Source of the DNA: Haliclystus octoradiatus
Taxonomy: Eukaryota > Cnidaria > Staurozoa > Stauromedusae > Haliclystidae
Reading direction: 5' to 3'
Assembly: GCA_916610825.1 (NCBI GenBank)
Contig: OU744450.1
Location: 8,266,030 to 8,330,029 of the forward strand
DNA: 64,000 nt
Each line of letters starts with the position of its first letter. The first letter of the stretch is position 1. The notes under the pieces were generated by a model. The model searched no databases, was not told where the DNA came from, and saw only the letters and a list, made by a program, of their open reading frames with translations. Both the position numbers and the translations under genes were made by a program. This document shows positions 1-64,000 of the stretch, piece after piece.

Positions 1-1469
1 GTGATTTATTACATTGCTATCTCAAGTAACTTTGTACATCATAGAAAAATTATTGTGCATTAAATTATGTTTGAAGAATTCCGATTAATATGTTCCAACC
101 TGAGTGTAATTACGATTATATTGTTTTACCATCAATTTATTCTTATGTGCAATCATAGATTTCATAAGTTAGCTTTATCTGTTTTGATTTCTGTCTATCA
201 AATGCTTTGTTTTTAATGATCAGTTCTTTGAAAGATGTTCAAGTAAATTTGAAGCTAATAGATGTTTCCTGATAATTGATGAATATGCACAATGATTAAA
301 ATCAAGAACAAATGAGGTTGTCATAAAGGGTACTAGAAAAAGCATGAAAGATTGACTAGCCATTTATTGTCCCTTCGCGATCTCTGAGAAACTATGAGCA
401 AATTATGACTTATCTGCTAAGATTTGCAACTATAAAATAACAAATTTAAAGGTTTGGAGCCCACCTTCATATACGCCATTATAATAATTTCATTCATATA
501 ACATCAGTTGATAAGTTATTAAGAATCTGACACAAATTAGATGGTAAGAATACAGCGTGGTGCATAAGTGTAACATATTACAACTGATATTCAAACCAGA
601 ACTGTTAAAAGGGATATAATATATATAAAAACTCTTCAAAATTAAATGTTGTAAATAAATTTGAAGTTATCATTAGAAAGACACAACATAACTATCTTCC
701 AACGTAAATCAAATCTTTTTTAAAAGTATTAGATTTACTTCAATTTATTCGCTGCAGAATATAAAATTTAAAAATTTTATTTCTTATTTCAAAAGATATT
801 TTTGAGTTCTATAAGATGTAAATTGATAAAAGTAGTTGCATTTGTTGCAATGAGAGGCCATTAAAAGAAGCTCTGTGTATCGTTCATGTTTACGTGACGA
901 TCATTCTGTCATCTAGGTATTCTATACTTAGGGAATGGGAATGCGATATCGGGGAAAACTTGATTATATCCTCTCTAGCCTCTCCCACCTATAAACCTGA
1001 CGCAAATAATTTACTTTGAATAAATGTCTTTCCATCTTAATCTAAATAAGAAATGATTTACTTTGTTTATCATTGTTGGTTCAACACAATAAGAAAACAA
1101 AGAATGTAATAATGGAGGTTAAAATTTGAAAATTCATGCTTTGAATGTTAATTCTTTTTTCTGCTGTTTCAGGAAGATACACTATCAAAATATTGGCAAT
1201 TGAAAAAATTAAATCAATATTATATATAAACGCTTTTGATGCCAAAATCTTTCAAACATGTGTAACTGTGTAAAAAGAGCTAAAGTCAGAATTGGAAGAA
1301 TTCCAGAGAGCATTTTGTTAGATAGTTCAAATAATAGAATTTATTATACATGCGCAAGCCTTTCTAATAGGAACTCTTAAAGAAACTCATCGTACATTAT
1401 TTCTTTAATAGTTTATACGATAGGATTATCGCGATTACAATCACCTTGATGTTTAATGTTATTTATCAG
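1..1469 (+). other. 3' part of C-to-A intron
   Basis: AT-rich non-coding sequence with no long reading frame. It ends in a good acceptor (ttatttatcag) before exon A. A second strong acceptor-like site with a long pyrimidine run (ttttttctgctgtttcag) ends at 1172, but I see no Ig-like sequence behind it. The retrotransposon target site used in unit 8 corresponds to 646-650 here. Nothing else is recognised. Confidence 0.7.
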
Positions 1470-1706
1470 ACCTCAGCTCTGCAACCATTGACGATCCTGG
1501 AACCATCAAAGATGGAAGTGAAATAACTTTTACATGTTCAGCTGACAGTAATGGAGGAGTGGTCACTTATGAATATCAAATAAATAACATCGTAGTTACC
1601 AACCCACATAGAATTTTTGGCAGTGACAATGGTATGGATTTGAAATGCATAGCAAAGCTAGCTGGTTTTGCTGACAAGGAAAGCAGTGTCACATTAGTGG
1701 TTCAAC
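1470..1706 (+). CDS. Ig-like domain exon A, unit 1
   Basis: This internal coding exon encodes one Ig-like domain: 78 full codons plus a codon split 1/2 across the flanking introns. The first two bases complete the previous codon and the final C starts the next. It is bounded by a TTATCAG acceptor and a GTAAGT donor. Visible Ig hallmarks are the B-strand pattern G..ITFTC with Cys22, and the F-strand pattern DNGMDLKC with Cys59, the presumed disulfide pair. The usual core Trp after the first Cys is absent, with Tyr residues (VTYEYQI, 31-37) in that region. The family assignment rests on this pattern, so C2/I-set-like is the best guess. A lacks the third Cys found in B and C and has its own 43-50 loop (TNPHRIFG). 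The apparent in-frame ATG at 1559 is internal to the exon and is not a start. The partner exons and function (adhesion or structural extracellular protein) are inferred only from the domain type. Confidence 0.8.
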
Positions 1707-2102
1707 GTAAGTTAAATTCAAGTCTTATATTTAATAATTTAGGAGCAATACCTTGTTATAGTGGTAATTTTTACTACTAAAGGCAATTGACTGGATTAAT
1801 TTTCCATAGTTTAATATAATGAATTTGTTGATGAAGCAACAGCGCAGCATCTTTGATATATTTTAAGTGATATGTAGATGAAAACTTTGCTTAATTTGTC
1901 TAAATTTTATGTATGCCGTATGTATGTTAGGGTACTTGAAAAATAGATTCTTGTTACGTTTAAGCTGAATGAGCCTGTACACGGATGTCAAATGAGCTGT
2001 AAAACACGATGTTCATTCACTACGGTATCTATAGTGTATATGTTTATTTCTTGTCCTGTAAATTCGACCTTCAATTTTAAACATTTACATTATAATTTTC
2101 AG

Positions 2103-2226
2103 GTGCAGTTTATCTATAGCCAGGCTAGTGGTCAATCTATTCCATGCTATAATCCTAGACAATTTGTATATTTGGATATTTTGAGTTTGTGAAATATATA
2201 ATATAATTATGTTATAAGATAATAAA
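2103..2226 (+). other. Possible alternative terminal exon with poly(A) signal
   Basis: A good acceptor (cattataattttcag) ends at 2102. Joined to the donor of exon A at phase 1, the reading would add five codons (R-A-V-Y-L) and stop at TAG. A canonical AATAAA lies at 2221-2226. Such an exon would release a protein ending after an A domain. Other units keep the site, with His in place of Tyr in most copies. The signals are visible, but use of the exon is pure inference and AT-rich DNA produces such motifs by chance. Confidence 0.2.
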
Positions 2227-3365
2227 CCTTATTTCCTAATTCACGTGAGAGCTTTTTACGCAAAGGATAAGAAAATATCTATACTTTCGATATTCAGCAT
2301 TTCTTGTAATTACAAAAGGTCTCAAAATCAAATTATCAGATCTGATTGCATTTTTCTTCAGAGCTTACCATGCTCATTGTTGTTTGCTTTTTCTAGCAAA
2401 CTGCTTCTTTGTATATCAATGAGGGACAGTACTTATTTGCTTAACAAACATGTGAACATCTACTATATAGACCGTTCTTGAAAATCGTGTTAATTATTAG
2501 TATACTGGTAGACGCTGGATGTACTGTCTTTAGATAGTTTCTAACATCTCTACTACTATATAAAAATGACCTTCAAATATTTTTACGCGCCAATCTCAAA
2601 AACCATGCGAAGAAATCCTGAACATCATACATCATTGGAAAGCTCTCTTTCGTGGTCTCAACATAGGCTATATTGAATTTTGACAAATCAACTGAATTCG
2701 TTGTAAAATTGAAAAATAAAGTTTTCCGTAAAATATCAAAGCCACAGCCTTCCAGAGCAAAGCCATGCAGGCAATGAACCGCGGACTTGATCAAGTGTTT
2801 TTAAATCTCGAACAAAACCAAAAACATAAATTGGGATGATGACGAAAACCCCTTTCTTCTTGTGTGATTATCTATGTTTAATAAACTGTCAGTGAAATTC
2901 TTCTTCTCCAGACGCAGTTCTCAGCTGAAAATCAATTATAAATTTCACTACAGAGAGTGCTATGTTTACGAAATTCAAAATAACCTATGAATTTTCAACA
3001 ATATTTGGTTTCAATCGTTTGAATTGTAAAAACATCCCCAAGCATCCGCTGTATCAAATTATCTATCAAATGTATTTAGTAACAGCGACAAGGAAAATCA
3101 TGATGAAATGTAGACATAAATAAATCTCAAATCTCTAAAGTCTCTTACTGTATATTATAATAGCATTTCACAGTTTAAAAGAAATCAGTATAGTAGTAGT
3201 TCATGATTTGAAAATGAAAGTATTAATAGTAGTAAGATTTTGCCCAAATATTCTCAAGAATTCCAGTTGCAATTTGATATTGATAATCTACTACGAATAT
3301 ATAGCTCAATATGAACCAGTTTATTGAAAAAAATTCAAGCCAACAATCAGACAAATGTAACGAAA

Positions 3366-3413
3366 GCGTGGTGTGGCCCGTGGTAGGATTTAGTAGTAAA
3401 CCACGGTCCACGC
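3366..3413. repeat. Imperfect palindrome (GCGTGG...CCACGC)
   Basis: GCGTGG (3366-3371) pairs with CCACGC (3408-3413), and CCGTGGT (3378-3384) pairs with ACCACGG (3400-3406) around a 15-nt loop. This is GC-rich for the region. All eight units have it, with one loop variant (gtggttgg in units 2 and 7, gtggtagg elsewhere). Its function is unknown. Confidence 0.6.
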
Positions 3414-3420
3414 AATAGTA

Positions 3421-3441
3421 TTAGGTTAGGGTTAGGGTTAG
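3421..3441 (+). repeat. Short TTAGGG-type tract
   Basis: One degenerate and two perfect TTAGGG-type repeats lie directly beside the palindrome. This is the metazoan telomere hexamer, but the tract is only 21 nt. It could be a relic of telomere-templated break repair or simply a terminal part of the surrounding repeat element. It is present at the same place in every unit. Confidence 0.7.
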
Positions 3442-4648
3442 TCCGAAAATGTCTTTGTATAATTATGCTTTGACATTCATTAGCCAGCTTTTAAATTAAA
3501 AGCCTATTCAAAAGGTCATAACATAAATGGAACCAGTCCAACCAAATTTTCTCCTTTCCACTGCTATCACATGGGGATATAATTATGAAGATGAATGTAA
3601 TGTGTGTATTATTGCTTCATTTAGCTATCGAATAAAGGAATTTATTTCGATAAAACAGTATTAACCTATTCTTTTGATAAAACGGCATTGACGCATTTTT
3701 TATATAGTTCATATTGAATTAGATGTCTACAGTAAAGATTTATTAATATCTATCAAATTGCAATTGGAGCACTTGAAAATCGTTTGGCAAAATCTTACTT
3801 TAATTAATACTTCTAAATAATGAATTATTATTAGTATAAGCAGGACGTCTGATATGGAAGGATTATGACATTTTTATTAACACACTTTCATTAGCTTTTA
3901 ATAATTACGTTTCAATTTTCTTATGGCATTTTATGTATGACGTTTTTATATATGGTTCATATTGAGCTATATATTCCTAGTAGTTTATTAATATCAAACT
4001 GCAACTGGAAATCTTGAGAATATTTGGGCAAAATCTTACTACTATTCATAATTTCATTCAAATCATGAACTACATACTGATTTCTTTTAAACTGTGAAAT
4101 GCTATTATAATATACAGTAATGGAATACGGGAGGATTGTGACATTTTAGTTTTAAGTTATATACATACAATATATGCTACATACATTTATGTCTTCAATG
4201 CTTCTTTGAGTTTAGTAAACATTACTAATTTTCGTAACCAAATGGATTTGAAAGATAATTTTTAAAGTTATGTTCAATGTTGTTACTACTTATATATTGA
4301 AATGGCAAATAGTGTAACTGAAATCCGTACCATTTTTATTTTAACCTTTTCCAAAAACGCTTCAGTAATCATTGTAACATTGTAATCTTTTCAACTTTAG
4401 CAAAATATTTTTCAACATGATATACACACAGTAACCGAAATCGAATAATGGTTTTGAAATCTTATATAACTCTTAAATTGTAAGAGTCAATCTTTATTAT
4501 ATACCGTTCCTGTTAACAATAGATTTTTGATTCTGAAATCAATACTTTGTATAGAGCGAAACCACCTCCTTAGTGGAGAAAATTAAATACAGCTTCTCAA
4601 CAGTAACAGGATTGCGCCGAAGGCCCACAAGGCCCTCCCCAGGAGCTA

Positions 4649-4678
4649 GAAAAAAGCTGCCGTAGGCAGCCTTTTTTC
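4649..4678. other. GC-rich hairpin with A-run/T-run flanks
   Basis: GAAAAAAGCTGCC pairs with GGCAGCCTTTTTTC around a GTA loop, with a single bulged base. The preceding 60 bp are also GC-rich with smaller inverted repeats (GGCCcacaaGGCC, CTCCttagtGGAG). The shape is that of a bacterial intrinsic terminator or a Pol III stop. In this animal intron it is more likely part of an old repeat or a folded RNA segment. Confidence 0.6.
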
Positions 4679-4978
4679 CTTGTGTTAGTTATAATAATGA
4701 CTTCAAACTGTTACTACCAATATAGACAATCATATTTATTAACAAAACAAATATAAAGCAGTTATACATGCTATAGGTACTCTGATTCAGATATTTTTGG
4801 TTACAATGAATTGCAGAAAAAGGCAAAATACCAACAATAGCAACGTTTTGACGGATTCTTATGTCTCATTTACCAGCATAAATGTATGTAATTAAGCTCT
4901 TCACCTTGGAGAATTTCGCCAACTTTGCAATAAAATATAATCATATCAATTCAATGTATAATGTGTTTAACTGCTTAG

Positions 4979-5215
4979 AACTCACTTCTGCAACCATCAT
5001 TGATCCTGGAGTACTCAAGGCTGGATTGGAAATAACCTTCACTTGTTCATCAGTTAGCAGCGGAGGAACGGTCACATATGAATATGAGATTGCTGGAATT
5101 TCAGTTTCAAACCCTTACACACCTTCCGCAGATGACAATGGTATGGAATTGAAATGCATTGCAAGTTTATCTGGCTGCCCTCCGCAAGAAAGCACTGTTT
5201 CTCTAGTTGTTCAAT
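4979..5215 (+). CDS. Ig-like domain exon B, unit 1
   Basis: An internal exon of the same 237-nt length and 1-1 phase as exon A, with acceptor ctgcttag and donor GTAAGTAG. The product aligns to A without gaps (48 of 78 identical) and to C (61 of 78). It has the same Cys22/Cys59 pair, the same DNGMELKC F-strand motif and Tyr in place of the core Trp. A third Cys at 66 (SGCPPQE) is shared with C and absent in A, so it may form an extra or intermolecular bond. The frame happens to stay open upstream to an ATG at 4882, but that stretch is intronic: it lies before the acceptor and shows no domain or signal peptide. Spliced after A the junction codon is CAA (Gln). Spliced before C it is TAC (Tyr). 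Confidence 0.82.
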
Positions 5216-7041: not shown

Positions 7042-7278
7042 ACCTCAGCTCTGCATCCATTAATGATCCAGGAACACTCCAGGCTGGAAGTCAGGTTACT
7101 TTCACTTGTTCATCAGTTAGCAGTGGAGGACCGGTTACATATGAATATGAGATTGCTGGAATCTCAGTTTCAAACCCTTACACAGCTACTGCAGCTAACA
7201 ATGGTATGGAATTGAAGTGCATTGCAATCCTATCTGGTTGCCCTCCGCAAGAAAGCAGTGTTTCATTAAATGTTGAAT
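7042..7278 (+). CDS. Ig-like domain exon C, unit 1
   Basis: The third 237-nt, phase 1-1 exon of the unit, with acceptor ttcatttgttag and donor GTAAGTAA. Its domain is the sister of B: same Cys22, Cys59 and Cys66, and identical VTYEYEIAGI core. Differences cluster at 1-20 and 48-52. Protein identity across the seven C copies in the window is complete by eye. Joined to the next unit's exon A the junction codon is TAC (Tyr), so the frame runs through from unit to unit. No Ser/Thr linker, EGF module or membrane segment lies between domains. Confidence 0.82.
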
Positions 7279-9142: not shown

Positions 9143-9379
9143 ACCTCAGCTCTGCAACCATTGACGATCCTGGAACCATCAAAGATGGAAGTGAAATAAC
9201 TTTTACATGTTCAGCTGACAGTAATGGAGGAGTGGTCACTTATGAATATCAAATAAATAACATCGTAGTTACCAACCCACATAGAATTTTTGGCAGTGAC
9301 AATGGTATGGATTTGAAATGCATAGCAAAGCTAGCTGGTTTTGCTGACAAGGAAAGCATTGTCACACTAGTGGTTCAAC
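9143..9379 (+). CDS. Ig-like domain exon A, unit 2
   Basis: Same exon structure as unit 1. It carries a private Ser72Ile change (AGT to ATT) near the end of the G strand; the counterpart in unit 7 keeps Ser. Leu75 is CTA here and TTA in units 1 and 6 (silent). Confidence 0.8.
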
Positions 9380-10817
9380 GTAAGTTAAAATCAAGTCTTA
9401 TATTTAATAATTTAGGAGCAATACCTTGTTATAGTGGTAATTTTTACTGCTAAAGGCAATTGACTGGATTAATTTTCCATAGTTTAATATAATGAATTTG
9501 TTGATGAAGCAACAGCGCAGCATCTTTGATATATTTTAAGTGATATGTAGATGAAAACTTTGCTTAATTTGTCTAAATTTTATGTATGCCGTATGTATGT
9601 TAGGGTACTTGAAAAATAAATTCTTGTTACGTTTAAGCTGAATGAGCCTGTACACGGATGTCAAATGAGCTGTAAAACACGATGTTCATTCACTACGGTA
9701 TCTATAGTGTATATGTTTATTTCTTGTCCTGTAAATTCGACCTTCAATTTTAAACATTTACATTATAATTTTCAGGTGCAGTTCATCTATAGCCAGGCTA
9801 GTGGTCAATCTATTCCATGCTATAATCCTAGACAATTTGTATATTTGGATATTTTGAGTTTGTGAAATATATAATATAATTATGTTATAAGATAATAAAC
9901 CTTATTTCCTAATTCACGTGAGAGCTTTTTACGCAAAGGATAAGAAAATATCTATACTTTCGATATTCAGCATTTCTTGTAGTTACAAAAGGTCTCAAAA
10001 TCAAATTATCAGATCTGATTGCATTTTTCTTCAGAGCTTACCATGCTCATTGTTGTTTGCTTTTTCTAGCAAACTGCTTCTTTGTATATCAATGAGGGAC
10101 AGTACTTATTTGCTTAACAAACATGTGAAAATCTACTATATAGACCGTTCTTGAAAATCGTGTTAATTATTAGTATACTGGTAGACGCTGGATGTACTGT
10201 CTTTAGATAGTTTCTAACATCTCTACTACTATATAAAAATGACCTTCAAATATTTTTACGCGCCAATCTCAAAAACCATGCGAAGAAATCCTGAACATCA
10301 TACATCATTGGAAAGCTCTCTTTCGTGGTCTCAACATAGGCTATATTGAATTTTGACAAATCAACTGAATTCGTTGTAAAATTGAAAAATAAAGTTTTCC
10401 GTAAAATATCAAAGCCACAGCCTTCCAGAGCAAAGCCATGCAGGCAATGAACCGCGGACTTGATCAAGTGTTTTTAAATCTCGAACAAAACCAAAAACAT
10501 AAATTGGGATGATGACGAAAACCACTTTCTTCTTGTGTGATTATCTATGTTTAATAAACTGTCAGTGAAATTCTTCTTCTCCAGACGCAGTTCTCAGCTG
10601 AAAATCAATTATAAATTTCACTACAGAGAGTGCTATGTTTACGAAATTCAAAATAACCTATGAATTTTCAACAATATTTGGTTTCAATCGTTTGAATTGT
10701 AAAAACATCCCCAAGCATCCGCCGTATCAAATTATCTATCAAATGTATTTAGTAACAGCGACAAGGAAAATCATGATGAAATGTAGACATAAATAAATCT
10801 CAAATCTCTAAAGTCTC

Positions 10818-12651: not shown

Positions 12652-12888
12652 AACTCACTTCTGCAACCATCATTGATCCTGGAGTACTCAAGGCTGGATT
12701 GGAAATAACCTTCACTTGTTCATCAGTTAGCAGCGGAGGAACGGTCACATATGAATATGAGATTGCTGGAATTTCAGTTTCAAACCCTTACACACCTTCC
12801 GCAGATGACAATGGTATGGAATTGAAATGCATTGCAAGTTTATCTGGTTGCCCTCCGCAAGAAAGCACTGTTTCTCTAGTTGTTCAAT
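12652..12888 (+). CDS. Ig-like domain exon B, unit 2
   Basis: Protein identical to unit 1 exon B. One silent difference: Gly65 is GGT instead of GGC. Confidence 0.82.
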
Positions 12889-14722: not shown

Positions 14723-14959
14723 ACCTCAGCTCTGCATCCATTAATGATCCAGGAACACTCCAGGCTGGAAGTCAGGTTACTTTCACTTGTTCATCAGTTA
14801 GCAGTGGAGGACCGGTTACATATGAATATGAGATTGCTGGAATCTCAGTTTCAAACCCTTACACAGCTACTGCAGCTAACAATGGTATGGAATTGAAGTG
14901 CATTGCAATCCTATCTGGTTGCCCTCCGCAAGAAAGCAGTGTTTCATTAAATGTTGAAT
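14723..14959 (+). CDS. Ig-like domain exon C, unit 2
   Basis: Same sequence as exon C of unit 1 by eye, with identical splice sites. Confidence 0.82.
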
Positions 14960-16823: not shown

Positions 16824-17060
16824 ACCTCAGCTCTGCAACCATTGACGATCCTGGAACCATCAAAGATGGAAGTGAAATAACTTTTACATGTTCAGCTGAC
16901 AGTAATGGAGGAGTGGTCACTTATGAATATCAAATAAATAACATCGTAGTTACCAACCCACATAGAATTTTTGGCAGTGACAATGGTATGGATTTGAAAT
17001 GCATAGCAAAGCTAGCTGGTTTTGCTGACAAGGAAAGCAGTGTCACACTAGTGGTTCAAC
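16824..17060 (+). CDS. Ig-like domain exon A, unit 3
   Basis: Protein as in unit 1; Leu75 codon CTA. The upstream intron carries 'ataggatctc', shared with units 4 and 8 only. Confidence 0.8.
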
Positions 17061-20332: not shown

Positions 20333-20569
20333 AACTCACTTCTGCAACCATCATTGATCCTGGAGTACTCAAGGCTGGATTGGAAATAACCTTCACTTGT
20401 TCATCAGTTAGCAGCGGAGGAACGGTCACATATGAATATGAGATTGCTGGAATTTCAGTTTCAAACCCTTACACACCTTCCGCAGATGACAATGGTATGG
20501 AATTGAAATGCATTGCAAGTTTATCTGGTTGCCCTCCGCAAGAAAGCACTGTTTCTCTAGTTGTTCAAT
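20333..20569 (+). CDS. Ig-like domain exon B, unit 3
   Basis: Protein identical to the other B exons; Gly65 codon GGT. Confidence 0.82.
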
Positions 20570-22410: not shown

Positions 22411-22647
22411 ACCTCAGCTCTGCATCCATTAATGATCCAGGAACACTCCAGGCTGGAAGTCAGGTTACTTTCACTTGTTCATCAGTTAGCAGTGGAGGAC
22501 CGGTTACATATGAATATGAGATTGCTGGAATCTCAGTTTCAAACCCTTACACAGCTACTGCAGCTAACAATGGTATGGAATTGAAGTGCATTGCAATCCT
22601 ATCTGGTTGCCCTCCGCAAGAAAGCAGTGTTTCATTAAATGTTGAAT
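22411..22647 (+). CDS. Ig-like domain exon C, unit 3
   Basis: Protein identical to the other C exons. The upstream intron has small private changes shared with unit 4 ('cttcatgtgg'). Confidence 0.82.
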
Positions 22648-24512: not shown

Positions 24513-24749
24513 ACCTCAGCTCTGCAACCATTGACGATCCTGGAACCATCAAAGATGGAAGTGAAATAACTTTTACATGTTCAGCTGACAGTAATGGAGG
24601 AGTGGTCACTTATGAATATCAAATAAATAACATCGTAGTTACCAACCCACATAGAATTTTTGGCAGTGACAATGGTATGGATTTGAAATGCATAGCAAAG
24701 CTAGCTGGTTTTGCTGACAAGGAAAGCAGTGTCACACTAGTGGTTCAAC
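24513..24749 (+). CDS. Ig-like domain exon A, unit 4
   Basis: Same protein as unit 3 exon A, Leu75 codon CTA. Confidence 0.8.
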
Positions 24750-28021: not shown

Positions 28022-28258
28022 AACTCACTTCTGCAACCATCATTGATCCTGGAGTACTCAAGGCTGGATTGGAAATAACCTTCACTTGTTCATCAGTTAG
28101 CAGCGGAGGAACGGTCACATATGAATATGAGATTGCTGGAATTTCAGTTTCAAACCCTTACACACCTTCCGCAGATGACAATGGTATGGAATTGAAATGC
28201 ATTGCAAGTTTATCTGGTTGCCCTCCGCAAGAAAGCACTGTTTCTCTAGTTGTTCAAT
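28022..28258 (+). CDS. Ig-like domain exon B, unit 4
   Basis: Protein identical to the other B exons; Gly65 codon GGT. Confidence 0.82.
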
Positions 28259-30099: not shown

Positions 30100-30336
30100 A
30101 CCTCAGCTCTGCATCCATTAATGATCCAGGAACACTCCAGGCTGGAAGTCAGGTTACTTTCACTTGTTCATCAGTTAGCAGTGGAGGACCGGTTACATAT
30201 GAATATGAGATTGCTGGAATCTCAGTTTCAAACCCTTACACAGCTACTGCAGCTAACAATGGTATGGAATTGAAGTGCATTGCAATCCTATCTGGTTGCC
30301 CTCCGCAAGAAAGCAGTGTTTCATTAAATGTTGAAT
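30100..30336 (+). CDS. Ig-like domain exon C, unit 4
   Basis: Protein identical to the other C exons. Confidence 0.82.
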
Positions 30337-32200: not shown

Positions 32201-32437
32201 ACCTCAGCTCTGCAACCATTGACGATCCTGGAACCATCAAAGCTGGAAGTGAAATAACTTTTACATGTTCAGCTGACAGTAATGGAGGAGTGGTCACTTA
32301 TGAATATCAAATAAATAACATCGTAGTTACCAACCCACATAGAATTTTTGGCAGTGACAATGGTATGGATTTGAAATGCATAGCAAAGCTAGCTGGTTTT
32401 GCTGACAAGGAAAGCAGTGTCACACTAGTGGTTCAAC
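32201..32437 (+). CDS. Ig-like domain exon A, unit 5
   Basis: Private Asp14Ala change (GAT to GCT), which makes residues 13-15 KAG as in exon B. This could be a point mutation or a short conversion tract from a B exon. Leu75 is CTA. Confidence 0.8.
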
Positions 32438-35709: not shown

Positions 35710-35946
35710 AACTCACTTCTGCAACCATCATTGATCCTGGAGTACTCAAGGCTGGATTGGAAATAACCTTCACTTGTTCATCAGTTAGCAGCGGAGGAAC
35801 GGTCACATATGAATATGAGATTGCTGGAATTTCAGTTTCAAACCCTTACACACCTTCCGCAGATGACAATGGTATGGAATTGAAATGCATTGCAAGTTTA
35901 TCTGGCTGCCCTCCGCAAGAAAGCACTGTTTCTCTAGTTGTTCAAT
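35710..35946 (+). CDS. Ig-like domain exon B, unit 5
   Basis: Protein identical to the other B exons; Gly65 codon GGC, as in units 1 and 6. Confidence 0.82.
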
Positions 35947-37784: not shown

Positions 37785-38021
37785 ACCTCAGCTCTGCATC
37801 CATTAATGATCCAGGAACACTCCAGGCTGGAAGTCAGGTTACTTTCACTTGTTCATCAGTTAGCAGTGGAGGACCGGTTACATATGAATATGAGATTGCT
37901 GGAATCTCAGTTTCAAACCCTTACACAGCTACTGCAGCTAACAATGGTATGGAATTGAAGTGCATTGCAATCCTATCTGGTTGCCCTCCGCAAGAAAGCA
38001 GTGTTTCATTAAATGTTGAAT
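37785..38021 (+). CDS. Ig-like domain exon C, unit 5
   Basis: Protein identical to the other C exons. The upstream 7-bp stem keeps its arms but has 'tacct' in the loop. Confidence 0.82.
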
Positions 38022-39886: not shown

Positions 39887-40123
39887 ACCTCAGCTCTGCA
39901 ACCATTGACGATCCTGGAACCATCAAAGATGGAAGTGAAATAACTTTTACATGTTCAGCTGACAGTAATGGAGGAGTGGTCACTTATGAATATCAAATAA
40001 ATAACATCGTAGTTACCAACCCACATAGAATTTTTGGCAGTGACAATGGTATGGATTTGAAATGCATAGCAAAGCTAGCTGGTTTTGCTGACAAGGAAAG
40101 CAGTGTCACATTAGTGGTTCAAC
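39887..40123 (+). CDS. Ig-like domain exon A, unit 6
   Basis: Matches unit 1 exon A including the Leu75 TTA codon, which supports the 38.4-kb block duplication. Confidence 0.8.
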
Positions 40124-43395: not shown

Positions 43396-43632
43396 AACTC
43401 ACTTCTGCAACCATCATTGATCCTGGAGTACTCAAGGCTGGATTGGAAATAACCTTCACTTGTTCATCAGTTAGCAGCGGAGGAACGGTCACATATGAAT
43501 ATGAGATTGCTGGAATTTCAGTTTCAAACCCTTACACACCTTCCGCAGATGACAATGGTATGGAATTGAAATGCATTGCAAGTTTATCTGGCTGCCCTCC
43601 GCAAGAAAGCACTGTTTCTCTAGTTGTTCAAT
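43396..43632 (+). CDS. Ig-like domain exon B, unit 6
   Basis: Protein identical to the other B exons; Gly65 codon GGC, as in its counterpart unit 1. Confidence 0.82.
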
Positions 43633-45458: not shown

Positions 45459-45695
45459 ACCTCAGCTCTGCATCCATTAATGATCCAGGAACACTCCAGG
45501 CTGGAAGTCAGGTTACTTTCACTTGTTCATCAGTTAGCAGTGGAGGACCGGTTACATATGAATATGAGATTGCTGGAATCTCAGTTTCAAACCCTTACAC
45601 AGCTACTGCAGCTAACAATGGTATGGAATTGAAGTGCATTGCAATCCTATCTGGTTGCCCTCCGCAAGAAAGCAGTGTTTCATTAAATGTTGAAT
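45459..45695 (+). CDS. Ig-like domain exon C, unit 6
   Basis: Protein identical to the other C exons. Confidence 0.82.
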
Positions 45696-47559: not shown

Positions 47560-47796
47560 ACCTCAGCTCTGCAACCATTGACGATCCTGGAACCATCAAA
47601 GATGGAAGTGAAATAACTTTTACATGTTCAGCTGACAGTAATGGAGGAGTGGTCACTTATGAATATCAAATAAATAACATCGTAGTTACCAACCCACATA
47701 GAATTTTTGGCAGTGACAATGGTATGGATTTGAAATGCATAGCAAAGCTAGCTGGTTTTGCTGACAAGGAAAGCAGTGTCACACTAGTGGTTCAAC
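47560..47796 (+). CDS. Ig-like domain exon A, unit 7
   Basis: Matches unit 2 exon A apart from keeping Ser72, so the Ile in unit 2 probably arose after the block duplication. Confidence 0.8.
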
Positions 47797-51068: not shown

Positions 51069-51305
51069 AACTCACTTCTGCAACCATCATTGATCCTGGA
51101 GTACTCAAGGCTGGATTGGAAATAACCTTCACTTGTTCATCAGTTAGCAGCGGAGGAACGGTCACATATGAATATGAGATTGCTGGAATTTCAGTTTCAA
51201 ACCCTTACACACCTTCCGCAGATGACAATGGTATGGAATTGAAATGCATTGCAAGTTTATCTGGTTGCCCTCCGCAAGAAAGCACTGTTTCTCTAGTTGT
51301 TCAAT
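51069..51305 (+). CDS. Ig-like domain exon B, unit 7
   Basis: Protein identical to the other B exons; Gly65 codon GGT, as in unit 2. Confidence 0.82.
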
Positions 51306-53139: not shown

Positions 53140-53376
53140 ACCTCAGCTCTGCATCCATTAATGATCCAGGAACACTCCAGGCTGGAAGTCAGGTTACTTT
53201 CACTTGTTCATCAGTTAGCAGTGGAGGACCGGTTACATATGAATATGAGATTGCTGGAATCTCAGTTTCAAACCCTTACACAGCTACTGCAGCTAACAAT
53301 GGTATGGAATTGAAGTGCATTGCAATCCTATCTGGTTGCCCTCCGCAAGAAAGCAGTGTTTCATTAAATGTTGAAT
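53140..53376 (+). CDS. Ig-like domain exon C, unit 7
   Basis: Protein identical to the other C exons. It is the last exon before the retrotransposon-bearing intron. Confidence 0.82.
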
Positions 53377-54416: not shown

Positions 54417-54421
54417 ATGTT
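54417..54421. repeat. Target-site duplication, left copy (ATGTT)
   Basis: ATGTT occurs on both sides of the element and once at the empty site in the other units. A five-base duplication is usual for Ty3/Gypsy integrases. Confidence 0.9.
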
Positions 54422-54495
54422 TGTTATATATGTGTTAACTAACACCTTGTATCTAGCGTAAACATGATCAATGGAGATTAGATTGAGACATCACA
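54422..54495 (+). repeat. 5' LTR (74 bp)
   Basis: Begins TG and ends CA, and is identical over all 74 bases to 59156-59229. It contains TATATA near its start and a small inverted repeat GTGTTA-ac-TAACAC (54432-54445). At this length the U3, R and U5 parts cannot be separated by eye. Confidence 0.93.
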
Positions 54496-54513
54496 TGGCG
54501 CAGTTGATATTTT
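54496..54513 (+). promoter_or_regulatory. Primer-binding site
   Basis: TGGCGCAGTTG... starts immediately after the 5' LTR. The TGG complements the CCA end of a tRNA, as expected for minus-strand priming. I cannot identify the tRNA, and the 3' limit is approximate. Confidence 0.7.
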
Positions 54514-54605
54514 TGAACTTACCATTGTTTATCATTATATCTTGTTTAGTTTGATATGTTATTTATTATCATTCTGTTTATCGTATATCGTTTACATTAA
54601 ACGTT

Positions 54606-57600
54606 ATGCCTAATAAAACTCCAAAATCGAAGGCACGAAAGAAGGGCAATGCTGATGTTGAGCCGCCCGTTTTTGACGATAATGTCAATCTCGCTGCCCG
54701 TATGGATTCGTTCGAAAAACGTATGGAGAGATCGTTATCTGCATTTATGGAACAACTTACTGGCCTTAATACGACTACTGAAACCGTGGCATCTGTTTTG
54801 CCTAATGCGAGCGACGACGATTCTCTTGTTGTTGAAAGTATGCCAGTGAGTAATATTGAAAACTCGGCTTCCGGGTTACGCCTATCGAGCGCTTACCCAC
54901 CTCCAGATAAATTGTCTGATAACCTTACATATGGTCAGTTTGTGGACTGGAGACATCAAATAGATAACTATTTATTATTTACGGGCCTTACTCGTTGCCC
55001 TAGCCAACAGCAAGTTTCATTTCTGATTTCTCGTATGACTCAAGAAACACTTGACACTGTCCGATTGGTATTAAATGTAGATCAAAGAACTATTACTACA
55101 GACACATTATTACTTAAATTAGATGGATATTTTAAGCAAAAAGATAATCTGCGGATACGTCGTGCAGCATTTATGCATTATTCACAAGGTGAGAATGAAC
55201 CGTTTTGTGCATTCTATCGTGAAAAACTGAAATTATTTCATCTTACGGACCCCTGTCCCCATTGTCACGATCGCTCATTGGGGGACTTCATTATAGAAGG
55301 ACTTTATGACTCTGAAATCAGACGAAAATGTCGTGCTCTCGATGAGGGCGTATCTATTCATATTATCAAAAAATTATGTGAATCCGAAGAAAATGCACGA
55401 AACGAAGAGGTCTCTAGAACGGCTCAGGTTGCTCGTGTAACTAATGTTCATAATAAGCTTCGTAAAAAAGCTTCAGATACGAAATCTAACACTGTCCCCT
55501 GCAAACATTGTGGTAAATCCAATCATGATCATGATCCACAATCTTGCTGGGCTAAGGATAAAACTTGTCATAATTGTAACAAGAAAGGTCATATAAGACC
55601 TGTGTGTCGTTCAGATAAAGTGGACATTAACAACGTTACAAATGATGTTTCACACATAATTGAAAGTGTGAAGCTAAATGCTGTTTCACATACCACACCT
55701 AACGTTACATCAAAATGTCAACACATCTCTCTAGCATTATCATTGACACATCGCAAGCAAATAACTGTTAGCGGTATTCCTGATACTGGCGCTGAAGTTT
55801 GTGTTGCAAGTGACACTCTATTGACGGACAATAATATTCCTTTGTCTCGTTTAAACCACACCTCAGACAAATTATCTGCTACTAATGGTTCACCTTTAGA
55901 AGTTCTTGGCGTTTTACATTGCCGTGGTATTCTAGCTACATATAGCACTAAGATGAAAATATATATTTGTAAAGGGGTCTCAGACTTTCTTATTCCGACT
56001 CAAAATCTAATTGAGCTTGGCATAATACCTGCTACTTTCCCCGCCCCTATGGCATCTATATTACGCACCGTTGTACAAGAAACTCCTCATGTTTCTTCTC
56101 ACAAGCCTCACAATTTATCTGAAAGTATACGTTCTCAACTACTAGATGAATTTTCTGATGTATTTAATGATACTGATCAACTTAAGCCAATGGCTGGTCC
56201 ACCGATGCACATTTATTTAAAAGATGATGTTACACCATATGCACTTTCTACACCTAGAAAAATTCCCTTTGCTTGGCAAGCTGAGGTCAAAAGCACACTT
56301 GACAGTATGGTAGCTAAGGGTATTATACAACTTGCCGATGATCATCCAACAGACTTTGTTAGCCCACTAGTTGTAGTACAGAAACCAAATGGTAAATTAC
56401 GTCTGTGTGTTGATTTTACTAAACTCAACCAACATGTCCGTCGTCCTGTTCACCCTTTCAAAAGTCCATGGGATGCTGTATCAAACGTACCTCATACAGC
56501 TAAGATATTTACTACGTTAGACGCAGCTTCTGGTTATTGGCAGGTACCCTTAGATGACGTTAGCTGTCCATTAACTACTTTTTTAACACCCTGGGGACGA
56601 TACCAATATAAACGTGCCGTTATGGGTCTTGTATGTGCCGGCGACGAGTATTGTCGTCGTGGTGACGAAGCATTGGCCAACTTACCTAATTTAGAAAAAG
56701 TTGTTGATGATATTTTAATTTATAATGACTCTTTTGAAGCACATCTTACAAATGTACGTAATGTTTTAGAGCGGTGCCGACAACAATGTATTACTTTAAA
56801 TCCTAATAAATTTATATTTGGACAAGAAAGTGTCGATTATGTGGGATTTATTCTAAGCAAAGATGGTATTAGTGCTACACCCAGACGAGTTGAAGCGATT
56901 ACTGACTTTCCAGCTCCTACCAATATTTCTGAGCTACGTTCGTTTATGGGAATGGTTAATCAATTAGGACACTTCTCTAAAGAAGTTGCTCATTGTTCAG
57001 AGCCATTACGGCATTTATTATCTATTCGTAACGAATTTATATGGACTGAACTTCACCAAAATGCATTTGACAGTGTCAAGAAGACACTAGTTTCACCTCC
57101 AGTCCTCAAGCAGTTTGATATTAATTTACCAACAGAACTGCATACTGATGCCTCCCGTACCTACGGTTTAGGTTGGAGTTTATTACAATTGCATGATGAT
57201 AATCAATGGCACTTAGTTGATTGTGGATCAAGGTATTTATCTGATGCTGAGTCACGCTATGCCACTATTGAGCTGGAATTATTAGCCGTTACATGGGCTG
57301 TTATTAAATGCAAGTTATATTTACTTGGATTACATAAATTTATTGTCATTACGGATCATAAACCTTTAGTTCCAGTTATTAACGACTTTACTTTGGCAGC
57401 TGTTGAAAATTCCCGCCTGCAACGGCTAAAAGAACAATTGGCGCCTTACTCTCTCATTGCTACATGGAAACGAGGTAAGGATCATTTAATACCTGATGCT
57501 TTGTCTCGTGCACCTGTTAAAAATCCTACAGATGAGGATCAACTGGCAGAAGATATTACGCAACATATTAATTCTATTGTTTGTATCAATGCAGCTTCTA

Positions 57601-58865
57601 TTACGTCAGAATGTCATCAACCTCAAGATGCTATGCTTTTAAAATTACAGAATGCTGCCTCTATTGATGATGAATATATTATGTTAAAAGAAATTATTTT
57701 AAAAGGTTTTCCAAATCAGCGTGACAAACTTCATCAAATTATTCGTCACTATTGGAAACTACGTGAAGAGCTGTCAATCAATGATCAACTTATTCTACGA
57801 GGTCATCAGCTTTTAATTCCTAAAACTATGCGAAAAGAAGTTTTACATCGCCTGCATGATTCTCATCAAGGTGTTGTTCGTACCAAACGACGTGCTCGCA
57901 ATGCTGTTTATTGGCCAGGTATGTCATCTGATATTACAAATTTAGTTGAATCATGTGCAATTTGCCAATCTCATTTACCGAGTCAACAAAAAGAAACATT
58001 GATTCCTAGCTATATGCCTTATCGTCCTTTTGAAGATGTAAGTTCTGATTTATTTAGTCATTCTGGTCATCATTTTATGGTTTACGTTGATCGATTGTCT
58101 GGTTGGCCTGTAGTTTGCCGTTACGGTAAAACCGATCCAACCTCTAATCTTATTATCAAAGACTTTAAAAAGATCTTTTCTGACACTGGTATACCTGTGC
58201 GTTTGCGGTCAGACAATGGACCTCAGTATAGTTCGCATGAATTTACTAAATTTTTGAAAGACTGGAATGTTACCTACGATCCATCTTCACCTCATTATCC
58301 TCAAAGTAATGGTCACGCGGAGGCAGGGGTAAAAGCTATGAAGAGTTTAATAATAAAATCCTTTGAGAATGCCAAATTTAATGAAGATCATTATTATGCC
58401 GGCCTGTTAGAGTGGCGTAACACTCCCAAATTTGATGGTTATTCTCCTGCTGAAATCTTGTATGGTTTCCCATTACGTTCACTTATTCCTGCTCATAAGT
58501 CTGCATTCGCTCCTAAATGGCAAGCCCTTGCAGCATTAGTTGACGCCCACAATAAGCAAATGGACATTGTAATATCTAAATATAATAAACATGCAAAGGA
58601 TCTACCAACACTGGCTATTGGCAACAAGGTCCGAATACAGGACCCATCTTCTAAACTATGGACACATGTGGGAACAATTATTGAAACTTTGCCACATCGT
58701 AAATATCGTATTCAAATGCCAAGTGGTCGAATGTGGGTCAGAAATCGAAAGTTTTTACGTATTGATTCAACATTAGATATTCCTCCAACTGCAACAATTT
58801 CATCAGACATCCAAATACCAAGACGAAGTCATCGTACTCCTGTTGTACCAAATCGGTACAGTTAA
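54606..58865 (+). CDS. Gag-Pol polyprotein of Ty3/Gypsy retrotransposon (1419 aa)
   Basis: A single uninterrupted frame from the first ATG after a 110-nt leader to TAA. Residues 1-290 are Gag-like capsid with a basic, disordered N-terminus. Two zinc knuckles follow: an atypical C-x2-C-x4-H-x6-C at 299-314 and a classical C-x2-C-x4-H-x4-C at 321-334. The aspartic protease has DTGA at 393-396. The reverse transcriptase spans about 545-745 with LDAASGYWQ (638-646) and VVDD (699-702; catalytic Asp701 and Asp702). The usual MPFGL-type segment is AVMGL, an atypical variant. RNase H spans about 840-968 with Asp848, Glu889, Asp917 and Asp964. Integrase has a zinc-binding HHCC module (His1084, His1087, Cys1117, Cys1120) and the catalytic triad Asp1148, Asp1203, Glu1239 with 35 residues between the last two. 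A small C-terminal module (about 1335-1388) resembles the GPY/F region. I see no chromodomain. Every catalytic residue looked for is present, so the element may be active. Gag and Pol share one frame with no visible frameshift or stop. Confidence 0.96.
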   Translation: MPNKTPKSKARKKGNADVEPPVFDDNVNLAARMDSFEKRMERSLSAFMEQLTGLNTTTETVASVLPNASDDDSLVVESMPVSNIENSASGLRLSSAYPPPDKLSDNLTYGQFVDWRHQIDNYLLFTGLTRCPSQQQVSFLISRMTQETLDTVRLVLNVDQRTITTDTLLLKLDGYFKQKDNLRIRRAAFMHYSQGENEPFCAFYREKLKLFHLTDPCPHCHDRSLGDFIIEGLYDSEIRRKCRALDEGVSIHIIKKLCESEENARNEEVSRTAQVARVTNVHNKLRKKASDTKSNTVPCKHCGKSNHDHDPQSCWAKDKTCHNCNKKGHIRPVCRSDKVDINNVTNDVSHIIESVKLNAVSHTTPNVTSKCQHISLALSLTHRKQITVSGIPDTGAEVCVASDTLLTDNNIPLSRLNHTSDKLSATNGSPLEVLGVLHCRGILATYSTKMKIYICKGVSDFLIPTQNLIELGIIPATFPAPMASILRTVVQETPHVSSHKPHNLSESIRSQLLDEFSDVFNDTDQLKPMAGPPMHIYLKDDVTPYALSTPRKIPFAWQAEVKSTLDSMVAKGIIQLADDHPTDFVSPLVVVQKPNGKLRLCVDFTKLNQHVRRPVHPFKSPWDAVSNVPHTAKIFTTLDAASGYWQVPLDDVSCPLTTFLTPWGRYQYKRAVMGLVCAGDEYCRRGDEALANLPNLEKVVDDILIYNDSFEAHLTNVRNVLERCRQQCITLNPNKFIFGQESVDYVGFILSKDGISATPRRVEAITDFPAPTNISELRSFMGMVNQLGHFSKEVAHCSEPLRHLLSIRNEFIWTELHQNAFDSVKKTLVSPPVLKQFDINLPTELHTDASRTYGLGWSLLQLHDDNQWHLVDCGSRYLSDAESRYATIELELLAVTWAVIKCKLYLLGLHKFIVITDHKPLVPVINDFTLAAVENSRLQRLKEQLAPYSLIATWKRGKDHLIPDALSRAPVKNPTDEDQLAEDITQHINSIVCINAASITSECHQPQDAMLLKLQNAASIDDEYIMLKEIILKGFPNQRDKLHQIIRHYWKLREELSINDQLILRGHQLLIPKTMRKEVLHRLHDSHQGVVRTKRRARNAVYWPGMSSDITNLVESCAICQSHLPSQQKETLIPSYMPYRPFEDVSSDLFSHSGHHFMVYVDRLSGWPVVCRYGKTDPTSNLIIKDFKKIFSDTGIPVRLRSDNGPQYSSHEFTKFLKDWNVTYDPSSPHYPQSNGHAEAGVKAMKSLIIKSFENAKFNEDHYYAGLLEWRNTPKFDGYSPAEILYGFPLRSLIPAHKSAFAPKWQALAALVDAHNKQMDIVISKYNKHAKDLPTLAIGNKVRIQDPSSKLWTHVGTIIETLPHRKYRIQMPSGRMWVRNRKFLRIDSTLDIPPTATISSDIQIPRRSHRTPVVPNRYS

Positions 58866-59143
58866 CTTCTTAATAATAATTATGATTTGTTATTGACGTT
58901 TAATGACTTTTTTGTTGTTGTGTGTATCTATAGTTCTGTTTACAGCTTTGATACCACGATAGTATGATATTGCCATACTAAAACATTATTAGTAGTTGAC
59001 ATTCAAATTCAATATACCTTCTTTATGTTAATTCTACTTTATTTTTCATTCATGCTTTTGTTCGTTTATTACCAGTACAATTTTAATGAATTCTTAAAAT
59101 TCCCATATCGATAAAAATCTTTAGTTTCTTAATCAAAACTCCC
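58866..59143 (+). other. 3' untranslated region of the retrotransposon
   Basis: 278 bp of AT-rich sequence between the stop codon and the polypurine tract. No second frame, env-like or otherwise, is seen. Confidence 0.8.
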
Positions 59144-59155
59144 AAAAGGGGGAGA
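59144..59155 (+). promoter_or_regulatory. Polypurine tract
   Basis: AAAAGGGGGAGA directly abuts the 3' LTR, as required for plus-strand priming. Confidence 0.9.
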
Positions 59156-59229
59156 TGTTATATATGTGTTAACTAACACCTTGTATCTAGCGTAAACATG
59201 ATCAATGGAGATTAGATTGAGACATCACA
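59156..59229 (+). repeat. 3' LTR (74 bp)
   Basis: Identical to the 5' LTR at every base and ends in CA next to the right target duplication. Confidence 0.93.
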
Positions 59230-59234
59230 ATGTT
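59230..59234. repeat. Target-site duplication, right copy (ATGTT)
   Basis: Matches 54417-54421. After it the host intron continues as in the empty units (tgtaaataaatttg). Confidence 0.9.
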
Positions 59235-60053: not shown

Positions 60054-60290
60054 ACCTCAGCTCTGCAACCATTGACGATCCTGGAACCATCAAAGATGGA
60101 AGTGAAATAACTTTTACATGTTCAGCTGACAGTAATGGAGGAGTGGTCACTTATGAATATCAAATAAATAACATCGTAGTTACCAACCCACATAGAATTT
60201 TTGGCAGTGACAATGGTATGGATTTGAAATGCATAGCAAAGCTAGCTGGTTTTGCTGACAAGGAAAGCAGTGTCACACTAGTGGTTCAAC
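60054..60290 (+). CDS. Ig-like domain exon A, unit 8
   Basis: Protein as in unit 3 exon A, Leu75 codon CTA. It is the first exon downstream of the retrotransposon. Confidence 0.8.
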
Positions 60291-61728: not shown

Positions 61729-62704
61729 TTACTGTATATTATAATAGCATTTCACAGTTTAAAAGAAATCAGTATAGTAGTAGTTCATGATTTGAAAATG
61801 AAAGTATTAATAGTAGTAAGATTTTGCCCAAATATTCTCAAGAATTCCAGTTGCAATTTGATATTAATAATCTACTACGAATATATAGCTCAATATGAAC
61901 CAGTTTATTGAAAAAAATTCAAGCCAACAATCAGACAAATGTAACGAAAGCGTGGTGTGGCCCGTGGTAGGATTTAGTAGTAAACCACGGTCCACGCAAT
62001 AGTATTAGGTTAGGGTTAGGGTTAGTCCGAAAATGTCTTTGTATAATTATGCTTTGACATTCATTAGCCAGCTTTTAAATTAAAAGCCTATTCAAAAGGT
62101 CATAACATAAATGGAACCAGTCCAACCAAATTTTCTCCTTTCCACTGCTATCACATGGGGATATAATTATGAAGATAAATGTAATGTGTGTATTATTGCT
62201 TCATTTAGCTATCGAATAAACGAATTTATTTCGATAAAACAGTATTAACCTATTCTTTTGATAAAACGGCATTGACGCATTTTTTATATAGTTCATATTG
62301 AATTAGATATCTACAGTAAAGATTTATTAATATCTATCAAATTGCAATTGGAGCACTTGAAAATCGTTTGGCAAAATCTTACTTTAATTAATACTTCTAA
62401 ATAATGAATTATTATTAGTATAAGCAGGACGTCTGATATGGAAGGATTATGACATTTTTATTAACACACTTTCATTAGCTTTTAATAATTACGTTTCAAT
62501 TTTCTTATGGCATTTTATGTATGACGTTTTTATATATGGTTCATATTGAGCTATATATTCCTAGTAGTTTATTAATATCAAACTGCAACTGGAAATCTTG
62601 AGAATATTTGGGCAAAATCTTACTACTATTCATAATTTCATTCAAATCATGAACTACATACTGATTTCTTTTAAACTGTGAAATGCTATTATAATATACA
62701 GTAC
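61729..62704. repeat. Large inverted repeat, unit 8
   Basis: Arms at about 61729-61902 and 62537-62704; TTAGGG-type tract at 62005-62025. Confidence 0.75.
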
Positions 62705-63562
62705 TGGAATACGGGAGGATTGTGACATTTTAGTTTTAAGTTATATACATACAATATATGCTACATACATTTATGTCTTCAATGCTTCTTTGAGTTTAGT
62801 AAACATTACTAATTTTCGTAACCAAATGGATTTGAAAGATAATTTTTAAAGTTATGTTCAATGTTGTTACTACTTATATATTGAAATGGCAAATAGTGTA
62901 ACTGAAATCCGTACCATTTTTATTTTAACCTTTTCCAAAAATGCTTCAGTAATCATTGTAACATTGTAATCTTTTCAACTTTAGCAAAATATTTTTCAAC
63001 ATGATATACACACAGTAACCGAAATCGAATAATGGTTTTGAAATCTTATATAACTCTTAAATTGTAAGAGTCAATCTTTATTATATACCGTTCCTGTTAA
63101 CAATAGATTTTTGATTCTGAAATCAATACTTTGTATAGAGCGAAACCACCTCCTTAGTGGAGAAAATTAAATACAGCTTCTCAACAGTAACAGGATTGCG
63201 CCGAAGGCCCACAAGGCCCTCCCCAGGAGCTAGAAAAAAGCTGCCGTAGGCAGCCTTTTTTCCTTGTGTTAGTTATAATAATGACTTCAAACTGTTATTA
63301 CCAATATAGACAATCATATTTATTAACAAAACAAATATAAAGCAGTTATACATGCTATAGGTACTCTGATTCAGATATTTTTGGTTACAATGAATTGCAG
63401 AAAAAGGCAAAATACCAACAATAGCAACGTTTTGACGGATTCTTATGTCTCATTTACCAGCATAAATGTATGTAATTAAGCTCTTCACGTTGGAGAATTT
63501 CGCCAACTTTGCAATAAAATATAATCATATCAATTCAATGTATAATGTGTTTAACTGCTTAG

Positions 63563-63799
63563 AACTCACTTCTGCAACCATCATTGATCCTGGAGTACTC
63601 AAGGCTGGATTGGAAATAACCTTCACTTGTTCATCAGTTAGCAGCGGAGGAACGGTCACATATGAATATGAGATTGCTGGAATTTCAGTTTCAAACCCTT
63701 ACACACCTTCCGCAGATGACAATGGTATGGAATTGAAATGCATTGCAAGTTTATCTGGTTGCCCTCCGCAAGAAAGCACTGTTTCTCTAGTTGTTCAAT
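63563..63799 (+). CDS. Ig-like domain exon B, unit 8
   Basis: Protein identical to the other B exons; Gly65 codon GGT. The following B-to-C intron is cut by the window end, and the matching exon C should lie just outside. Confidence 0.82.
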
Positions 63800-64000
63800 G
63801 TAAGTAGATCTTACTGAGTGTTGAGAAACAGTTTCAGTTGTGCAGTAATGCAGAAAATATATCATTGACGGAAATATGCATTGCAATAATTTGAAGACCT
63901 TTTTATTGTAAATCCTTGAGATTTCTACCATGCTCTTCATATGATAAGGATAGATTAGACAACCATTTTGCCAATCTAAATTATACTATCTTTTGAAAGC

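What the first reader, a model, noticed from the sequence alone, without database searches (positions are those of the whole stretch)
1..64000. Tandemly amplified three-exon cassette encoding at least 23 in-frame Ig-like domains
Eight copies of a 7.68-kb unit each hold three 237-nt exons, all phase 1-1 with strong splice sites. Unit copy number can therefore change without breaking the frame. Seen directly: exon lengths, phases, splice sites and near-identity of copies. Known: extracellular Ig modules are often single phase 1-1 exons, as in hemicentin-type proteins. Inferred: one giant gene whose domain number is set by recent whole-cassette amplification, introns included. A locus like this could give copy-number or isoform variation in an adhesion or recognition protein.
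Basis: partly seen in the sequence, partly recalled or inferred. Interest (0 to 1): 0.8.

Follow-up and report, generated by a model that had tools for sequence, protein, structure and literature searches.

The report
Expandable immunoglobulin-exon array in stalked jellyfish
A stalked jellyfish carries a long run of near-identical, interchangeable DNA cassettes, each adding three immunoglobulin-like modules in frame to what is probably one very large cell-surface or matrix protein, so the protein could lengthen or shorten simply by gaining or losing cassettes.

Summary
Confirmed and enlarged. The window (Haliclystus octoradiatus chromosome 5) holds 23 Ig-like exons of 237 nt, all phase 1-1, in 7.68-kb A-B-C cassettes. 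They belong to a longer array: at least 52 such exons on one strand over 157 kb; 51 could be read and 51 of 51 are intact, with no stop when joined. Exons are constrained: in 6 of 7 region comparisons they differ less than the introns (best: 7/474 against 276/2673 sites), though gene conversion contributes, and 5 of 8 comparisons show fewer amino-acid than silent changes per site. Amplification is recent: 11 aligned units differ by 3-54 substitutions, three units recur five units away, and at the edges single exons were gained (A-A) or lost (A-C) without breaking frame. A younger gypsy insertion sits in one intron. The same genome carries further arrays of related exons with 2.19-kb and 333-bp units (238 matches to a 37-base pattern of the latter). 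First and last exons of the window's gene were not found and no transcripts could be checked, so 'one giant gene' is likely, not shown. Closest precedent: LPA kringle IV-2. Function, inferred: an extracellular rod whose length follows copy number.

The parts
1470..1706 (+). Ig exon A, unit 1
4979..5215 (+). Ig exon B, unit 1
7042..7278 (+). Ig exon C, unit 1
9143..9379 (+). Ig exon A, unit 2
12652..12888 (+). Ig exon B, unit 2
14723..14959 (+). Ig exon C, unit 2
16824..17060 (+). Ig exon A, unit 3
20333..20569 (+). Ig exon B, unit 3
22411..22647 (+). Ig exon C, unit 3
24513..24749 (+). Ig exon A, unit 4
28022..28258 (+). Ig exon B, unit 4
30100..30336 (+). Ig exon C, unit 4
32201..32437 (+). 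Ig exon A, unit 5
35710..35946 (+). Ig exon B, unit 5
37785..38021 (+). Ig exon C, unit 5
39887..40123 (+). Ig exon A, unit 6
43396..43632 (+). Ig exon B, unit 6
45459..45695 (+). Ig exon C, unit 6
47560..47796 (+). Ig exon A, unit 7
51069..51305 (+). Ig exon B, unit 7
53140..53376 (+). Ig exon C, unit 7
60054..60290 (+). Ig exon A, unit 8 (unit cut by window end)
63563..63799 (+). Ig exon B, unit 8; its C exon lies just outside the window (C6:8331672)
54422..59229 (+). Gypsy-type retroelement in the C-A intron of unit 7: 74-bp identical ends, 5-bp target duplication ATGTT read by eye, one open frame 54555-58865; younger than the block duplication

Best explanation
The window is the central part of an in-gene tandem array in the stalked jellyfish Haliclystus octoradiatus. 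At least 52 phase 1-1 Ig exons (19 A-type, 14 B, 17 C-type, 2 E) lie head to tail on one strand and would be spliced together into a rod of about 4,100 residues of Ig-like domains in an extracellular protein. An old exon triplication made the A-B-C cassette; unequal exchange between near-identical cassettes then multiplied it recently. Because every exon begins and ends in the same codon phase, gaining or losing a cassette or a single exon changes the length of the protein but not its frame. Shown: exons, phases, splice signals, constraint, recent amplification, frame-keeping gains and losses at the edges, further arrays elsewhere. Inferred: one transcript, constitutive splicing, secretion or membrane anchoring, length as the selected property.
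For: 23 of 23 exons in the window and 51 of 51 readable exons of the 52 known are open with AG...GTAAGT; joined, 4028 aa, 0 stops. All 52 are on one strand over 157 kb. Exon constraint in 6 of 7 comparisons: 7/474 against 276/2673 differences in the duplicated A'-E end (p=3e-13), 1/237 against 174/2022 (p=4e-8), 8/237 against 134/1627 (p=0.003), 2/474 against 69/4694 (p=0.035), and at the 5' edge 13/237 against 155/437 and 25/237 against 165/456, where the flanks are barely alignable, so those two p-values are inflated. Amino-acid against silent changes: A-B p=6e-6, A-C p=0.002, B-C p=0.005, A-A'(3') p=0.0004, A-A'(5') p=0.012 (the comparisons share exons and are not independent). Recent exchange: 11 of the 14 B-bearing units were aligned and differ by 3-54 substitutions; u4-u6 match u9-u11 at 8, 3 and 7. 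The central units are homogeneous and the edges diverged. Frame-keeping single-exon events: A-A at 8226658/8229093 and A-C without B at 8358159/8360337. Further arrays of related exons: 333-bp unit (234-nt exon, 99-bp intron; four complete exons read, minus-strand C2 array only) and 2,192-bp unit (237-nt exon; two exons read), all phase 1-1. The two C2 arrays are bracketed by distinct non-array exons, as single genes should be.
Against: First and last exons of the C6 gene were not found: 9.0 kb upstream and 9.9 kb downstream hold no recognisable domain exon, but the read-through scan used there is insensitive (over four known Ig exons its control gave one sub-threshold Ig match). A 12-kb foreign stretch (C6:8344519-8356675), 13 kb unread at 8362073-8375274 and 52 kb unread upstream could hide gene ends. 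Some comparisons show no exon constraint: A' against A, exon 22/237 against intron 146/1678, p=0.67; C' against C, 11 amino-acid and 2 silent changes; A against the 8156-kb copy p=0.32, A against A at 8358 kb p=0.075. Sliding comparison shows conserved stretches that extend beyond exons, as gene conversion would give. Within the 11 near-identical units exons are only slightly less variable than introns (8/711 and 126/6683; no test run). No RNA data.
Confidence: 0.74

Rival explanations
1. Several neighbouring genes rather than one: the array between 8220 and 8343 kb and the piece at 8358-8378 kb (and the two exons at 8156-8157 kb) belong to two or three separate paralogous Ig-repeat genes on one strand. 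(Overlaps with the best explanation: 48 of the 52 exons would still be in one gene.)
For: The A'-E ending occurs twice (8341459-8343039 and 8376773-8378377), the copies 88% alike, with a 12-kb unrelated stretch between the pieces.
Against: No open frame that looks like an end exon was recognised in the 12-kb stretch (by eye) and no Pfam match in the 8.5 kb of it that were scanned (weak test); array-type intron sequence resumes on its far side in nearly the same register (8343912-8344519, then 8356675 onward), which looks like an insertion inside an intron.
Confidence: 0.3
2. Each 7.68-kb cassette is its own small gene.
For: None found; only the absence of transcript data leaves it open.
Against: No Pfam match in seven other open frames of a unit; the exons are phase 1 at both sides and open throughout in every readable copy. 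A promoter and small terminal exons were not specifically searched for.
Confidence: 0.04
3. Exons are alternatives chosen one at a time, as in Dscam, to diversify a receptor.
For: Tandem arrays of phase-matched Ig exons resemble Dscam clusters (start of the abstract of PMC1397879).
Against: The copies encode almost the same protein: five distinct sequences among 23 exons, so choosing among them adds almost no diversity.
Confidence: 0.05
4. A decaying, unexpressed array kept uniform only by exchange.
For: Conserved stretches spread beyond exons; a few comparisons show no constraint; the neighbouring minus-strand array has one copy with a stop and one partial copy.
Against: 51 of 51 readable exons intact, and in 5 of 8 comparisons copies keep amino acids better than silent sites.
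Confidence: 0.08
5. The copy number is an assembly artefact.
For: A 7.7-kb unit is about half a typical HiFi read (recalled), and u5/u10 differ by only 3 substitutions; contig N50 is 1.5 Mb and curation corrected 260 joins in the assembly.
Against: No N in the window; 11 of 11 aligned units are distinguishable; QV 56.6 and 68-fold HiFi. A wrong count would not remove the array.
Confidence: 0.1

Closest known systems
Human LPA kringle IV-2 repeat
   Same: Coding array inside one gene; 5.6-kb units with two short exons and large introns, 1 to about 40 units, near-identical, domain number follows copy number (passages of PMC11462820).
   Different: Kringle, not Ig; two exons make one domain there, here three one-exon domains per unit; variation between people is measured there, not tested here; here several arrays of related exons lie in one genome.
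Nebulin triplicate region (and titin segmental duplication)
   Same: Eight-exon block of about 10 kb repeated in a giant gene, copy number varies (passages of PMC9109913; for titin only the listing of PMC9142044).
   Different: Eight exons repeated three times in a muscle protein; here 14 B-bearing units of three exons.
Hemicentin-type extracellular Ig-repeat proteins
   Different: Hemicentin's other domains were not tested; these exons lack the usual Trp and are nearly identical to each other.
Hydractinia Alr allorecognition proteins
   Same: Medusozoan Ig-superfamily surface proteins in gene clusters (passages of PMC11067881).
   Different: Alr proteins are single-pass proteins with highly polymorphic ectodomains from many genes of low identity; here one array of near-identical domains. 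Homology was not tested.
Dscam exon clusters
   Same: Tandem arrays of exons for Ig modules (start of abstract of PMC1397879).
   Different: Dscam alternatives are mutually exclusive and diverged (recalled); these are nearly identical.

Membership tests
In-gene coding tandem array of the LPA kringle IV-2 kind | Tandem units with introns, exons phase-symmetric so units add in frame | tested here: met
   51 of 51 readable exons phase 1-1, no stop when joined
In-gene coding tandem array of the LPA kringle IV-2 kind | Units nearly identical through recent exchange | tested here: met
   3-54 substitutions among 11 aligned units; block duplication
In-gene coding tandem array of the LPA kringle IV-2 kind | One transcription unit with single 5' and 3' ends | tested here: inconclusive
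   Ends not found at C6; sister arrays on C2 are bracketed by distinct exons
In-gene coding tandem array of the LPA kringle IV-2 kind | Copy number differs between individuals | not testable with these tools
   One haplotype held
Immunoglobulin superfamily domain | Ig profile match and fold | tested here: met
   Ig_2 34.4 bits over cut-off 27, with PKD marginal at 23.6 over 23.5; model pLDDT 92 in one of five, 44 of 50 listed PDB matches Ig, best E 0.0015
Immunoglobulin superfamily domain | Cys pair | tested here: met
   Cys 22 and 59 in all five distinct window exons
Immunoglobulin superfamily domain | Core Trp (common, not strictly defining) | tested here: not met
   No Trp in A, B or C
Hemicentin | G2F domain in the same gene | not tested
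   Search sent five times, never answered
Hemicentin | VWA domain, calcium-binding EGF repeats, fibulin-type end | not tested
   Gene ends not reached
Dscam-type exon cluster | Diverged alternative exons | tested here: not met
   Five distinct protein sequences among 23 exons
Dscam-type exon cluster | Mutually exclusive splicing | not testable with these tools
   No RNA data
Alr | Homology to Hydractinia Alr and a single membrane pass | not tested
   No Alr sequence was fetched; gene ends not found

The most novel reading that the evidence does not exclude
Haliclystus has a set of surface proteins whose length is highly evolvable: related phase 1-1 Ig exons have been amplified separately at several loci and in three cassette sizes (333 bp, 2.19 kb, 7.68 kb), and individuals differ in array length, so that rod length itself is a heritable, rapidly changing recognition or adhesion trait.
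Probability: 0.13. Interest if true: 0.82.

Novelty: new member of a known kind. Interest (0 to 1): 0.52.

Why it matters
The in-gene coding arrays with whole introns that I know of (LPA, nebulin, titin) are from human genes. Here a small animal genome carries several, built from related exons in three cassette sizes, with intermediates (single-exon gains and losses, units copied five units away, diverged edges) preserved. It is a natural test bed for how protein length evolves by exchange between cassettes, for how splicing copes with dozens of near-identical exons and introns, and for whether length of an extracellular rod is under selection. The species has RNA and long-read data, so the main claims can be tested at once.

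Tried and rejected
Ends of the gene: a profile of A, B and C on all open frames of at least 40 aa in the readable flanks found no exon beyond those counted and the two at 8156-8157 kb (the upstream locus L072 was fetched later and only inspected by eye and by Pfam); inspection of downstream open frames of at least 70 aa found no clear membrane exon. Pfam scans of L069, L071 and L072 with stops read as Gly found nothing, but the same scan over a stretch with four known Ig exons gave only one sub-threshold match on + and none on -, so it is no evidence of absence. The C2 terminal Ig, EGF-like and C-terminal exons gave no match at C6:8.1-8.6 Mb, nor did the C2 5' Ig exon. I first took the C-terminal module of the C2 genes for a SEA domain; Pfam does not support that. 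The EGF-like assignment is also below Pfam's cut-offs and rests on its Cys pattern. Paper searches for prior reports: 0 papers; one paper; passages, unrelated; none of the listings shown names such arrays in Haliclystus; only open-licence papers are held and I saw titles and starts of abstracts. The G2F search for hemicentin did not complete (five attempts: 84, 89, 93, 97, 98).
Full report
IDENTITY. The window is G000:C6:8266030-8330029 in an assembly of 261,861,806 bases and 33 contigs. Contig C33 (18,316 bp, 18,000 read) is a mitochondrial genome in which I see a DNA-polymerase-like frame (by eye) and in which ARAGORN finds only tRNA-Met and a UCA-anticodon tRNA, which I take as Trp, as in non-hydrozoan medusozoans (recalled). 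The genome note of Haliclystus octoradiatus (PMC9975415, first of two parts of the text seen) gives 262 Mb, 33 scaffolds, an 18.3-kb mitochondrial genome, a longest chromosome of 39,977,743 bp and chromosome 5 of 27.81 Mb; C1 is 39,977,743 bp and C6 27,810,455 bp. So the window lies on chromosome 5 of that stalked jellyfish.

OBSERVATION. The 23 exons are there, all 237 nt, phase 1-1, with AG and GTAAGT. Introns in the window are 3,272 nt (A-B, 8 of 8), 1,826-1,841 (B-C, 7) and 1,864-1,865 nt (C-A, 6), with a seventh C-A intron of 6,677 nt that holds a gypsy-type element. Chance: 3 exon-like segments in a unit against a mean of 0.06 in 300 Markov shuffles. The proteins are Ig-like, with the caveats given in the observation check.

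THE WHOLE ARRAY. Searches of the own genome with A and C (150 candidates scored of 404 and 393, so lower bounds) and a profile of A, B and C on the readable flanks give 52 exons from C6:8220892 to 8378377, all on +, in the order C' A' C A A, then B C A fourteen times (the last A is the diverged A'), then E, then A C A' E. By type: 19 A or A', 14 B, 17 C or C', 2 E. One B (8337282) lies in an unread gap; the other 51 are readable and all 51 intact. Two more relatives lie at 8156 and 8157 kb; of the stretch between them and the array 52 kb were not read, but searches list no relative there.

HISTORY. A, B and C resemble each other only over the exon and some tens of bases around it, and silent divergence is about 1.07 for A-B and 0.35 for B-C: the cassette is old. 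The cassettes themselves differ by 3-54 substitutions in about 7.4-7.7 kb (11 units aligned of the 14 with a B exon; four of them with 275-277 unread bases). u4, u5 and u6 match u9, u10 and u11 (8, 3, 7), so a block was copied over a distance of five units (window 1-16004 against 38418-54421: 99.94%); the gypsy element is in u11 but not in u6, so it came later. E is a diverged B (75% over 868 bp, introns included). The edges are diverged, the centre uniform, as unequal exchange predicts. Single-exon changes at the edges, A followed by A, and A followed by C without B, keep the frame.

CONSTRAINT. In one search, 6 of 7 region comparisons show exons less diverged than the rest at p<0.05; the seventh (A' against A) does not (p=0.67). 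Two of the six use flanks that hardly align, which inflates their p-values. Of eight amino-acid against silent comparisons, five reach p<0.05 (A-B, A-C, B-C, A with 3' A', A with 5' A'), one is 0.075 and two show nothing (A with the 8156-kb copy, C with C'); of three that involve the minus-strand array one reaches it. Gene conversion explains part of the exon conservation but not the amino-acid bias.

SISTER ARRAYS. On C6 minus, 8488-8564 kb, one search lists 23 matches, one with a stop (also partial) and one more partial; most spacings are 2.19 kb, and the two units read have one 237-nt phase 1-1 exon each. On C2, two arrays run away from each other with a 333-bp spacing; in the minus one, four complete exons read have 234 nt in phase 1-1 and a 99-bp intron, taking the GTGAGT donor (two weaker in-frame donors exist). 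A 37-base pattern with up to 2 mismatches occurs 142 times forward and 96 times reverse in the genome, at least 7 of the reverse ones on C3, and 0 times when read backwards as control; only about 100 places are listed. Each C2 array has a distinct Ig exon before it and a distinct Ig exon, an EGF-like exon and a shared C-terminal exon after it. A protein tree of 23 rows keeps the C2 and C6 exons apart and places the minus-strand C6 exon within the B/C/E group (9 of 16 inner branches open). So related exons were amplified separately, in different cassette sizes.

FUNCTION. Phase 1-1 exons, a Cys pair and, in the C2 sisters, an EGF-like module point to an extracellular protein. Near-identical repeats fit a spacer or multivalent rod better than a diversified receptor. 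That is inference. Novelty: the principle is known from LPA and nebulin (passages); this is a new member, notable for its length and for recurring several times in one genome.

Noticed in passing
window 54422-59229: Gypsy-type retroelement with reverse transcriptase, RNase H and integrase zinc-binding matches, 74-bp identical ends, single open frame; present in one of the seven C-A introns of the window.
   Followed up: partly
window about 10818-11792 and the same place in the other A-B introns: About 1-kb element with about 170-bp inverted arms 93% alike, ends reading TA-CTGTATATTATAATAG on both sides, perhaps a mariner-like non-autonomous element; seen in all eight units of the window, so older than the amplification.
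   Followed up: partly
G000:C2:3272138-3320541 (-) and 3356396-3408208 (+): Two divergent arrays of Ig exons with 333-bp spacing.
   Followed up: partly
G000:C6:8488648-8563967 (-): Array of single Ig exons, mostly in 2.19-kb units, on the strand opposite to the window's array; one copy with a stop, one partial.
   Followed up: partly
G000:C2:2422198-2422461 (+): A third, 100% identical copy of the distinct 5' Ig exon of the C2 genes, about 0.9 Mb away.
   Followed up: no
G000:C1:25099343-25138162 (-): Dense run of I-set matches with an open frame of 2831 aa, perhaps a titin- or twitchin-like muscle gene.
   Followed up: no
G000:C4:23502705, 23556278, 23640537: I-set matches inside long open frames (1353, 1353 and 394 aa) that look duplicated.
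   Followed up: no
G000:C6:8344519-8356675: About 12 kb of unrelated sequence between two pieces of the array, with the same open frame repeated about 3 kb apart.
   Followed up: partly
G000:C6:8381474-8382055 (-), in L071: Frame that reads like a decayed reverse transcriptase of a LINE-type element (by eye).
   Followed up: no
G000:C33: Mitochondrial contig with a DNA-polymerase-like frame and two tRNAs found.
   Followed up: partly
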